Shown: one piece after another, positions 12,451 to 18,554 of the stretch | How positions within the stretch are numbered: the first letter of the stretch is position 1 | Layout: each line of letters opens with the position of its first letter | Assembly (NCBI RefSeq): GCF_040958095.1 | Contig: NC_091228.1 | Span: 13,754,399-13,818,398 of the forward strand | DNA length: 64,000 nt | Direction of reading: 5' to 3' | DNA from: Procambarus clarkii | Lineage: Eukaryota > Arthropoda > Malacostraca > Decapoda > Cambaridae | The notes under the pieces: model-generated | The model's input: the letters and a program-made list of their open reading frames with translations, nothing else | Told to the model about the DNA's origin: nothing | Databases searched by the model: none | Made by a program: the position numbers and the translations under genes

Positions 12451-13128
12451 TGTGACGGTAACGCGTTGGTGTTCGGCTGTTTAAGGCTAGGGGTATGGCC
12501 TCGTCACATAGTTATAAAAAAAAAGAAAAACTGGAACGTCGTCTGTGGTAAGGTAAGGAGAAGACACACAAAACACAAGTAAATTTTAACAATGAAATTT
12601 TAATTACGTTAAATAAATCAAAACATGAATAAAATGCACAAACAAATTCTTATAATAAAATCAATCAATCAAAATAATAAGAATACTTAAATGACACAAT
12701 GAAAAGTTACGTTAAGGCAAAATAACAAGAAGTGCAACACAAAATTAAATGGGAGGTGCTGGAATATTGGCTTTAAGCTATCACCTCTCTCAGTACACGC
12801 TAACGTCTAGCCGGGAGGAGTGATAACTACGAAAGCACTGAACATTCTGAGGTCGTGGCGACCCCAGACATCAAGTAGTATGGGGGGGCGAGTGCAGGTG
12901 CAGCCAGACTGGCGACCAATCAGCGGGGCCGGTAGCGATCAACGAGTAGTTTGGCGGTTTGAGTCTGAACAGGTGTCTCTGGCTGCAACGTTTTGCGCTC
13001 TGGCAAGCCTTGCTGGTGTTGTTGTCGTTGTTGTTGGACATTTCTTCCATAGTAGTTTTATATAACCACAACGACGTAATTGTGGAGGGAAGAGCAGGCT
13101 CAATCTCTTGAAAGAGATTATCGTCACA
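12451..13128 (-). repeat. 3' LTR of gypsy copy B
   Basis: 678 bp, TGTGACGGTAACGCG to TTATCGTCACA on the plus strand, so both ends obey TG...CA and form a short inverted repeat. It is the partner of 17872-18554. Confidence 0.95.
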
Positions 13129-13144
13129 ACTCTCCCCCGAAGCC
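13129..13144 (-). promoter_or_regulatory. Polypurine tract of gypsy copy B
   Basis: On the minus strand CTTCGGGGGAGAGT lies directly before the 3' LTR, the expected place for the plus-strand primer of reverse transcription. Confidence 0.6.
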
Positions 13145-13149
13145 TGCGG

Positions 13150-13420
13150 TTCTGGAAGAAGTACGTCGTTATGTGGTGGAGTAATGGATGGAGTCGCTTC
13201 TACTTCATAAACTCTGGAGAGATCATGGGCTAAGATGTTGTCAGACTCTTGGTATAGCGTGTCTCCAGGTTGAATTTCTGCAGTTAGCAAGCCCATAGTA
13301 GAAGACGTTGAGATGAGAAGTGGGCGTGCTGCAGGAGGTGTAGGGTGGTGTGGTCCGTGTGGATGGTGGACCGAGCACTTTTCAGGTGTGGAGTGAAGTG
13401 CTGAAGCTTCAGGATGAGGA
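13150..13420 (-). pseudogene. C-terminal half of RNase H, frameshifted
   Basis: The minus-strand reading continues RNase H in other frames after the long ORF: LLFLILKLQHFTPHL, then IHTDHTTLHLLQHAHF, a stop after LLLWA, and ESDNILAHDLSRV near 13215. The last is the usual C-terminal RNase H motif of gypsy pol. It is followed only by about 70 bp and the LTR, so RNase H is the last domain of the element and integrase does not follow it. Confidence 0.75.
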
Positions 13421-16978: not shown

Positions 16979-17845
16979 TGTGAAATTAGCAAATAAAGGT
17001 ACACGAATATTCAATAGTGAATGTCAGAAACAGGACAACGTGGCAACTGGTACCTATCCTGTGAGATCTTTAACAATTAAAGTTAAGAAAAAGATGTTAA
17101 ATGATTAAATTAAATCAAGGGCGCAGGAAATCTTGTACCCGGTACTCATGTAAGAGGATAAGGGCAAGAAAATCCTACTAACAAATGAAACAGAGTTTCG
17201 AAAACAAATGAAACAGTTAAATGCTTCAAAAGTAAAATTGGTAGTCCAAGGATGTAGGCATACCTTGCCACGTCTCTATAGGACATAAAGCAAGTTTTTC
17301 CTACTGAATTTAATATGATACTTACAGAATTAGCGAACTTTTGTGCTCTGAAAAAATAAGCTAATTCCCTACCGTTGTATGTATCATCATCTCTGACTGA
17401 CGTGTAGGGGTGCGTGGTGTCAACTGGTGACGAGAACTGCTGCTGAGGTCCCAATTCAGCAACTAAAGTTCGAGCTAGAGGAACTATGGCCCTCTTTGTC
17501 CTCCTACAGTCAGATTGCAGAAGATTGGGTACTCTTGACCCGGGGCAGACCACAGTACCAGGGTACCAATATGATGATCTGTCAGAATGAGAAATATTCA
17601 AGGGACATAGATGGTAAACACGAGTAATAACACGGAGGGAGAGATGACCAATTAAGAGTATGACTGCGGCCTACAGTCACCACGTAATCCAAAGTTGTCT
17701 CACCTTCACCATATGTTACTCTCGTAATGCACAATACACCGCACCTTATAAAAAATGAAATTGAATATGAAAAATAGTAAAGCTACGTTAACAAAGTTAA
17801 ATACGCTTACCATAAATTACCACTTGGCACCAGTACCTGAGTGAA
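16979..17845 (-). other. 5' leader of gypsy copy B
   Basis: Non-coding leader between the primer-binding site and gag. About 17340-17650 is homologous to copy A 1170-1500, so it is a conserved part of the element. The 151-codon open frame here has no protein-family resemblance. Confidence 0.6.
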
Positions 17846-17864
17846 GCTCCCGGACAGGCCCCCA
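17846..17864 (-). promoter_or_regulatory. Primer-binding site of gypsy copy B
   Basis: Minus strand TGGGGGCCTGTCCGGGAGC starts 7 bases after the 5' LTR. It would pair with a tRNA 3' end of CCCGGACAGGCCCCCA type. It resembles the proline-tRNA type apart from a two-base swap. The tRNA identity is inferred. Confidence 0.7.
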
Positions 17865-17871
17865 TATAACT

Positions 17872-18554
17872 TGTGACGGTAACGCGTTGGTGTTCGGCTG
17901 TTTAAGGCTAGGGGTATGGCCTCGTCACATAGTTATAAAAAAAAATTAGAAACTGGAACGTCGTCTGTGGTAAGGTAAGGAGAAGACACACAAAACACAA
18001 GTAAATTTTAACAATGAAATTTTAATTACGTTAAATAAATCAAAACATGAATAAAATGCACAAACAAATTCTTATAATAAAATCAATCAATCAAAATAAT
18101 AAGAATACTTAAATGACACAATGAAAAGTTACGTTAAGGCAAAATAACAAGAAGTGCAACACAAAATTAAATGGGAGGTGCTGGAATATTGGCTTTAAGC
18201 TATCACCTCTCTCAGTACACGCTAACGTCTAGCCGGGAGGAGTGATAACTACGAAAGCACTGAACATTCTGAGGTCTGAGGTCGTGGCGACCCCAGACAT
18301 CAAGTAGTATGGGGGGGCGAGTGCAGGTGCAGCCAGACCGGCGACCAATCAGCGGGGCCGGTAGCGATCAACGAGTAGTTTGGCGGTTTGAGTCTGAACA
18401 GGTGTCTCTGGCTGCAACGTTTTGCGCTCTGGCAAGCCTTGCTGGTGTTGTTGTCGTTGTTGGACATTTCTTCCATAGTAGTTTTATATAACCACAACGA
18501 CGTAATTGTGGAGGGAAGAGCAGGCTCAATCTCTTGAAAGAGATTATCGTCACA
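17872..18554 (-). repeat. 5' LTR of gypsy copy B
   Basis: 683 bp. Relative to the 3' LTR it has an 8-bp duplication (GGTCTGAGGTC near 18272), a 3-bp deletion in a GTT run, and few substitutions. Confidence 0.95.

What the first reader, a model, noticed from the sequence alone, without database searches (positions are those of the whole stretch)
12451..18554. Ty3/gypsy element with copia-like domain order and SCAN-like capsid (Gmr1-like) in a probable crustacean
Seen: integrase (HHCC, D-D-35-E, GPY-type module) precedes RNase H, and RNase H (ending ESDNILAHDLSRV) is followed only by a purine tract and the LTR. Seen: the capsid has ESYRRKFRD and LVNLMLVEEFLRRVP in SCAN-domain spacing. Known: Gmr1-like gypsy elements have integrase upstream of RT/RNase H, and the vertebrate SCAN domain is thought to derive from their capsid; they were described mainly from deuterostomes. 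Inference: this is an arthropod lineage of that group.
Basis: partly seen in the sequence, partly recalled or inferred. Interest (0 to 1): 0.85.

Follow-up and report, generated by a model that had tools for sequence, protein, structure and literature searches.

The report
Crayfish-type retrotransposon copy lacking reverse transcriptase
A young jumping gene in a large crustacean-like genome has its enzymes in the rare order known from the Gmr1 group and a SCAN-like coat protein, but this copy, like a whole sub-lineage of its family, has lost its reverse transcriptase and apparently spreads with the help of complete relatives, often landing in AT-repeat tracts.

Summary
In the window's own 4.03-Gb genome, sister copies carry RT exactly between integrase and RNase H (27 of 30 fetched RT loci show INT-RT-RH, none the reverse), and a divergent relative has SCAN capsid, INT, RT, RH in one frame. 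The Gmr1-like order is real, but not new for crustaceans: Piednoel et al. 2013 reported Gmr1-like elements in decapods.

What looks new: (1) a single-origin RT-less lineage has multiplied (15 short, 8 long of 27 LTR pairs read on one contig; 572 exact junction words genome-wide) while sharing its gag-PR-integrase pool with RT-bearing copies; (2) insertion prefers ATAT, often in (AT)n tracts, with 4-bp duplications; (3) Gag may start with a SAP-like fold, a candidate tether; (4) SCAN-like capsids are very abundant in this genome.

Clade membership by phylogeny could not be tested (no reference sequences). Verdict: new variant of a known kind.

The parts
12451..18554 (-). complete LTR-to-LTR element (copy A), RT-less Gmr1-like Ty3/gypsy element
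   Evidence: LTR pair and flanks
17872..18554 (-). 5' LTR (683 nt)
   Evidence: K2P 0.0045 to the 3' LTR
12451..13128 (-). 3' LTR (678 nt)
17847..17864 (-). putative primer binding site, 7 nt inside the 5' LTR; tRNA not assigned (resembles the proline-tRNA site of gammaretroviruses, recalled)
   Evidence: sequence
13409..16978 (-). one open frame: gag, protease, integrase, pre-RT linker, start of RNase H (MFRL start also in copy B)
16799..16978 (-). Gag N-terminal region, possibly SAP-like (helix-extended loop-helix)
   Evidence: AF2 model pLDDT 83-86 in residues 21-60, VIA-align rows; Pfam gives no hit
15794..16042 (-). capsid stretch matching Pfam SCAN PF02023 (profile 2-83 of 90)
   Evidence: 9.1e-8, 32.2 bits
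15653..15694 (-). Gag zinc knuckle CX2CX4HX4C
15245..15475 (-). retropepsin-like protease by eye, motif DTA
   Evidence: sequence; no Pfam hit
14663..14830 (-). integrase H2C2 zinc-binding domain
14318..14608 (-). integrase core (rve), D-D-35-E
13778..13879 (-). integrase p58_C / SH3-like C-terminal module
13592..13598 (-). site from which about 940 bp holding RT are missing
   Evidence: copies L014, L026 carry RT here
13215..13573 (-). RNase H remnant, reading frame broken in this copy
13129..13142 (-). polypurine tract before the 3' LTR
18555..18651 (.). (AT)n tract, 5' side of the element
12378..12450 (.). (AT)n tract, 3' side of the element
985..5666 (+). second, older copy (B), 76-78% identical to A, also without RT, 3' end eroded

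Best explanation
Copy A is a recently inserted member of a Gmr1-like Ty3/gypsy family (order gag-PR-INT-RT-RNase H in one open frame) that belongs to a non-autonomous sub-lineage founded by one deletion of the RT domain. Shown: the deletion, its common junction in many separate insertions, RT-bearing sisters in the same genome, and a common gag-PR-integrase pool. Inferred: RT-less RNAs are packaged with RT-bearing ones, copied by RT and RNase H supplied in trans, and recombine with them during copying, which keeps gag-PR-INT fresh while the old RT-less 3' module stays diverged. Integration prefers ATAT, often inside (AT)n tracts, with 4-bp duplications. Whether integrase itself or a Gag tether picks the site is open.
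For: Anatomy and domains. RT exactly at the gap in sister copies, frame open from INT through RT into RNase H in L014; RT hits RVT_1 2.2e-32, best PDB match Ty3 RT 1.4e-71; integrase best PDB match Ty3 2.8e-33. 27 of 30 fetched RT loci show INT-RT-RH. RT-less copies: 13 of 20 fetched copies run through the junction without RT (picked by likeness to A). Among the first 100 LTR ends listed for contig C1 I read off 27 same-strand pairs: 15 short, 8 long, 4 neither; class means differ by 955 bp. 5 of the 15 short ones hold the exact junction word and the other 10, fetched, show the same deletion. Exact words genome-wide: 572 RT-less, 841 RT-bearing. A 241-base junction query: 40 of 40 scored matches full length, of 1245 candidates. 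Separate insertions: different flanks. Exchange: 5 fixed differences between 13 RT-less and 31 RT-bearing sequences, all in the last 24 nt before the junction, and 9 of 21 RT-less polymorphic sites shared, yet RNase H 72.7-74.1% identical in 26 of 28 RT loci that reach it. L042 has RT plus RT-less-type RNase H (93.7%). Target: 37 of 57 outer flanks begin ATATAT against 0.7% of background positions; 9 of 12 readable 5' flanks AT.
Against: No expression, packaging or transposition data. C1 classes rest on length alone for 3 of 8 long pairs, and 4 of 27 pairs (5710, 6039, 6041, 6651 bp) fit neither class. The AT background is one 57.6-kb window where 360 of 785 ATAT words already lie in AT tracts of 10 bp or more, so plain ATAT preference explains much; AT tracts may grow after insertion, and some flanks are duplicates (4 identical pairs). 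Purifying selection on gag-PR-INT (shared variants 23 synonymous, 4 non-synonymous; singletons 38 and 38) cannot be credited to RT-less copies because RT-bearing copies share the pool and show the same pattern (34 and 8).
Confidence: 0.85

Rival explanations
1. Ordinary decay: copy A is just one damaged copy whose RT was lost after insertion.
For: A's RNase H is frame-broken.
Against: The same junction occurs in many separate insertions with different flanks; A's LTRs differ at only 3 of 675 sites.
Confidence: 0.03
2. The integrase-before-RNase H order is an artefact of nested insertion or rearrangement in a conventional gypsy element.
For: Nested copies exist in the genome (L009).
Against: 27 of 30 RT loci and the divergent L130 show INT-RT-RH, L014 and L130 in one open frame.
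Confidence: 0.02
3. The element has Gmr1-like order but is an independent rearrangement, not of the Gmr1 clade.
For: No Gmr1 sequence could be compared; INT and RT resemble Ty3 in general.
Against: SCAN-like capsid and this order occur together in two divergent lineages; Piednoel et al. placed decapod RT/RH sequences with the Gmr1 clade (PMC3587641).
Confidence: 0.12
4. The AT-tract flanks reflect only integrase taste for the 4-mer ATAT, as in Drosophila errantiviruses, with no taste for tracts.
For: 360 of 785 background ATAT words are in tracts of 10 bp or more; ATAT and TATA palindromes are known errantivirus targets (PMC5408687).
Against: Given ATAT, the tract runs to (AT)5 in 28 of 39 flanks against 40% in background, p = 6e-5.
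Confidence: 0.4
5. RT-less copies are not parasites but helpers: in a one-frame element Gag and RT are made one to one, and RT-less copies supply extra Gag-PR-INT.
For: One copy (L007 and L014) is open from the Gag start through RT and RNase H. 10 of 12 fully readable fetched RT-less copies stay open from the capsid past the junction, and 5 of 5 others read from the Gag start do so. RT-less copies are the larger class on C1.
Against: Open frames are also expected from recombination with RT-bearing copies.
Confidence: 0.12

Closest known systems
Gmr1-like Ty3/gypsy elements (Goodwin and Poulter 2002, not seen; cited in PMC3587641)
   Same: integrase upstream of RT; capsid with SCAN homology (PMC4592553, passage)
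   Different: crustacean-type host; RT-less sub-lineage; AT-tract insertion; possibly SAP-like Gag start (none of these found in the passages read)
GyRex4, GyRex5, Gychoro2, GyMaja1, GyLiva4 of decapods (Piednoel et al. 2013, PMC3587641, passages)
   Same: decapod elements related to the Gmr1 clade
   Different: the passages describe RT/RH or INT fragments, not a complete order; sequences not available here
LGF3 of the annelid Lamellibrachia luymesi (PMC8220671, passages)
   Same: protostome element placed in the Gmr1 family by RT, RH and INT trees
   Different: other host phylum; no RT-less lineage or AT targeting mentioned in the passages
Non-autonomous LTR elements relying on a partner's proteins (e.g. 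BARE-2, recalled)
   Same: part of the coding region missing, LTRs and signals kept, moved in trans
   Different: here RT is cut out while gag-PR-INT stay open and are shared with the partner by recombination
Drosophila errantiviruses (gypsy, ZAM, Idefix groups; PMC5408687, passages)
   Same: palindromic 4-bp targets including ATAT and TATA
   Different: conventional RT-RH-INT order (recalled); no SCAN capsid (recalled); here long (AT)n tracts
AT-microsatellite inserters of other kinds: sesarmid endogenous nimaviruses with Ginger2-like transposase (PMC10871703, passages), MuTAnT MULEs (PMC4486113, passages)
   Same: insertion into (AT)n or (TA)n
   Different: DNA transposases, not LTR retrotransposons

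Membership tests
LTR retrotransposon | two near-identical LTRs TG..CA, target duplication, PBS and PPT | tested here: met
   4-bp duplications CTGG, ACAC, ATTG, ATAT read by eye in four elements of C1; in A itself the AT tract hides the length
Ty3/gypsy (Metaviridae) | INT and RT closest to Ty3 | tested here: met
   best PDB hits Ty3 (RT taken from sister L014); PDB holds few retrotransposon proteins
Gmr1-like elements | integrase upstream of RT and RNase H | tested here: met
   A: INT before RNase H, RT absent; sisters and L130: INT-RT-RH
Gmr1-like elements | capsid with SCAN homology | tested here: met
   A 32.2 bits, B 32.4, L130 57.3, cut-off 27
Gmr1-like elements | groups with Gmr1 in INT, RT and RH trees | not testable with these tools
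   no Gmr1 sequence at hand; viral contigs gave no relative of INT or RT
autonomous LTR element | own RT and RNase H | tested here: not met
   no RT hit in A's frame and only a short linker there; RNase H frame broken
SAP domain | Pfam SAP match | tested here: not met
   no SAP hit for the A or B pieces at E<=10 (A again in 56)
SAP domain | helix-extended loop-helix fold | tested here: inconclusive

The most novel reading that the evidence does not exclude
A Gmr1-like LTR element that homes to (AT)n microsatellites through a SAP-type DNA-binding domain at the start of Gag, and that lives as a two-part system: RT-bearing copies plus a stable RT-less lineage that shares gag-PR-integrase by recombination and raises the Gag:RT ratio of a one-frame element.
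Probability: 0.15. Interest if true: 0.75.

Novelty: new variant of a known kind. Interest (0 to 1): 0.5.

Why it matters
It gives young, complete Gmr1-like elements in a crustacean-type genome, where the earlier decapod report that I could read describes fragments. It shows SCAN-like capsids far outside vertebrates and in large numbers (20,862 first-look candidates; 150 of the 150 scored above cut-off; 0 of 14 control genomes), which bears on where the SCAN fold came from before vertebrate zinc-finger genes took it up. [quoted passage not shown] a Gmr1-like family with strong ATAT preference would be another case. The RT-less lineage with a shared coding pool is a natural test of how non-autonomous LTR elements last.

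Tried and rejected
Integrase and RT pieces in viral contigs: no pattern match for integrase; 12 pattern matches for RT, none confirmed. Capsid by sequence against PDB: only an unrelated hit at 0.45. Capsid structure prediction from two sequences: mean pLDDT 44, not used. NCBIfam: for integrase IS481, IS3 and IS30 transposases, all far under cut-off, and a chance hit; nothing for the other three pieces. SAP by Pfam: none. tRNA genes in the window: none, so the PBS was not assigned. Whether copy B has the same RT deletion as A or a separate one nearby: undecided, because the alignment needs extra bases in B at the right edge (gaps of 17 and 6) and B is 22-24% diverged; the search meant to settle it did not complete. 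Genome-wide count of the A/T junction variants: not answered. Second SCAN-rich element fetched, L129: frames short and part unreadable, not used. No held paper has all of SAP domain, Gag, retrotransposon, integration, AT-rich. The search on RT-deleted non-autonomous LTR elements gave 64 papers, of which 15 titles and abstract starts were seen. Absence is limited to that open-access library and these terms.

Full report
Check of the observation. The element lies at 12451-18554 on the minus strand, with LTRs of 683 and 678 nt that start and end alike and differ at 3 of 675 aligned sites (11 gap columns), K2P 0.0045: a recent insertion. One open frame (13409-17014, 1201 aa from the first possible start; probable ATG at 16978) encodes Gag with a zinc knuckle, a DTA-type protease (by eye) and an integrase with H2C2, rve and p58_C domains, and then runs into the first part of RNase H. 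The rest of RNase H follows in other frames. After it come a purine tract and the 3' LTR.

SCAN. In the full 1201-aa protein SCAN was not reported at E<=1. Scanned apart, the capsid gives SCAN at 9.1e-8, 32.2 bits, above the curated 27; copy B gives 8.2e-8. A search of the whole genome with the SCAN profile gave 20,862 first-look candidates, of which 150 were scored and 150 passed the cut-off (52.9-65.3 bits), against 0 of 14 control genomes. The scored ones are the best and so not a random sample.

Relatives in the same genome. The window lies in a 4,027,284,227-base genome of 2308 contigs. The size equals the 4.03 Gb given for the crayfish Procambarus clarkii (PMC12842422, passage); this is an inference from size alone. 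Of 20 copies fetched from the capsid-PR region to beyond the 3' LTR, 13 run through integrase, junction and RNase H without RT (one of them readable only as far as A's 12932), 2 (L014, L026) carry about 940 bp more at exactly that point, 1 (L009) is a nested arrangement that holds RT, 1 (L017) leaves the family before the junction and 3 could not be read there. The extra piece is RT: in L014 the frame is open from the capsid through the integrase linker and RT into RNase H; in L026 the frame breaks inside RT. The L014 RT hits RVT_1 at 2.2e-32, best PDB match Ty3 RT. Thirty fetched loci found with that RT (40 scored of 2039 candidates) show integrase upstream in 29, RNase H downstream in 28, both in 27, and never the opposite order; one of them is the L014 copy itself. 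A divergent element, L130 (INT 42%, RT 50%, capsid 38% identical), has SCAN capsid (57.3 bits), zinc knuckle, integrase, RT and RNase H in that order inside one open frame of at least 1547 aa. I fetched two SCAN-rich elements; the other, L129, could not be used.

The RT-less lineage. Among the first 100 exact LTR ends listed on contig C1 (9166 genome-wide) I read off 27 same-strand pairs with spacings of 5.2-6.7 kb: 15 of 5245-5400 bp, 8 of 6191-6366 bp, and 4 others (5710, 6039, 6041, 6651). The means of the two classes differ by 955 bp, about the size of the missing piece. Five of the 15 short ones carry the exact junction word of A; the other ten were fetched and all ten show the same deletion with small variants. 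Five of the 8 long ones carry the exact RT-bearing word, three rest on length. So one founding deletion has been multiplied. Exact words count 572 for the RT-less and 841 for the RT-bearing junction genome-wide; word variants make both lower bounds, and the commonest RT-less variant on C1 was not counted. RT-less copies have different flanks and are separate insertions.

Exchange with RT-bearing copies. Over 1301 nt of integrase and linker, 13 RT-less (A included; one of the 14 was dropped for gaps) and 31 RT-bearing sequences (one copy present twice, as L014 and L029) show 5 fixed differences, all within 24 nt of the junction, and 9 of 21 sites polymorphic in RT-less copies are polymorphic for the same bases in RT-bearing ones. 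Over 2.4 kb from the capsid on, 14 RT-less copies against L014 and L026 differ consistently at 4 codons, all at the junction. Yet RNase H is only 72.7-74.1% identical to A in 26 of the 28 RT loci that reach it (L033, partial, 80.6%; L042 93.7%) and LTRs 85-93%. A shared 5' pool beside an old, diverged 3' module means recombination, most simply template switching during reverse transcription of co-packaged RNAs (inference). L042, with RT of one group and RNase H of the other, looks like a recombinant. In six of eight RT-less copies printed, the middle of RNase H is read in a shifted frame though the frame stays open (by eye against L014; two copies gave no print), so RNase H is probably inactive and must also come in trans. 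Variants of capsid-PR-INT shared by two or more RT-less copies are 23 synonymous and 4 non-synonymous, singletons 38 and 38, against a neutral expectation of 2.9-3.4 non-synonymous per synonymous. RT-bearing copies show the same pattern in integrase (34 and 8), so this does not prove selection on RT-less copies themselves.

Target sites. In the 39 loci whose LTR end was read, 30 continue with ATAT (mostly long AT tracts), 6 do not, and 3 continue into the element's own leader; one copy is counted twice and a few look like duplicates. An unselected sample, the first 100 LTR ends of C1: 28 followed by (AT)5 (one search list), 26 by the leader AGTTAT (one search list), and 46 fetched, of which 11 are leader variants, 6 rearranged and 29 outer flanks (sorted by eye). 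Of 57 outer flanks 37 begin ATATAT, expected 0.7% per position in the window background. Readable 5' flanks were AT in 9 of 12 (2 of 14 unreadable). Duplications read by eye are 4 bp: CTGG, ACAC, ATTG, ATAT. Genome-wide 3171 exact LTR ends are followed by (AT)5 and 2264 by AGTTAT, of 9166; the other 3731 were not sorted beyond C1. Much of this could come from taste for the 4-mer ATAT, since 360 of 785 background ATAT words lie in tracts of 10 bp or more; given ATAT, 28 of 39 flanks extend to (AT)5 against 40% in background (p = 6e-5). The background is one 57.6-kb window, so this step is moderate evidence.

Comparison with the known. Gmr1-like elements are marked by integrase upstream of RT and are linked to the SCAN domain (PMC3587641, PMC8220671, PMC4592553, passages). 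What I did not find in the passages read or in the searches listed under Tried and rejected is an RT-less lineage of this group, AT-tract targeting in it, or a SAP-like Gag start. ATAT targets are known for errantiviruses (PMC5408687) and AT-tract insertion for other transposon kinds in crustaceans and plants.

Verdict. Observation confirmed, interpretation supported with corrections, novelty moderate: a new variant of a known kind.

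Noticed in passing
window 985-5666 (+): Second, older copy (B) of the family, 76-78% identical to A, frames broken, RT also missing at nearly the same place but with a slightly different right edge; may be a separate or an older form of the deletion.
   Followed up: partly
window about 12330-12380, 11351-11516, 11924-12090, 62068-62265; flanks in L059, L062, L065, L023, L106: Several AT tracts next to insertions belong to one interspersed repeat with GTCGTACCTAGTAGCCAGAACGC beside the tract: the family repeatedly lands in AT tracts carried by another repeat.
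   Followed up: no
window 10375-11301 (-) and 60032-60580 (+): Two related fragments of a reverse-transcriptase-like ORF (RVT_1 2.2e-4, under its cut-off, for the first), near AT tracts; possibly Penelope-like (guess).
   Followed up: no
window 40321-41709 (+): 462-aa ORF that reads like a piggyBac-type transposase (by eye, no search).
   Followed up: no
window 33125-37188 (+): Gag-like, endonuclease-like and RT-like ORFs in a row, apparently a non-LTR retrotransposon (by eye, no search).
   Followed up: no
window 62263-64000: Tandem array with a 275-bp unit, copies 99-100% alike within two reported families.
   Followed up: no
own genome, C1 near 8589567-8601647 and 53189571-53229312: Regularly spaced LTR ends (about 6040 bp, and 13.1-13.5 kb apart): local tandem duplication holding this element.
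   Followed up: no
own genome, SCAN profile search: SCAN-like capsids are very abundant and the best scores twice that of this element (65 against 32 bits); the one that could be checked (L130) has Gmr1-like order.
   Followed up: partly
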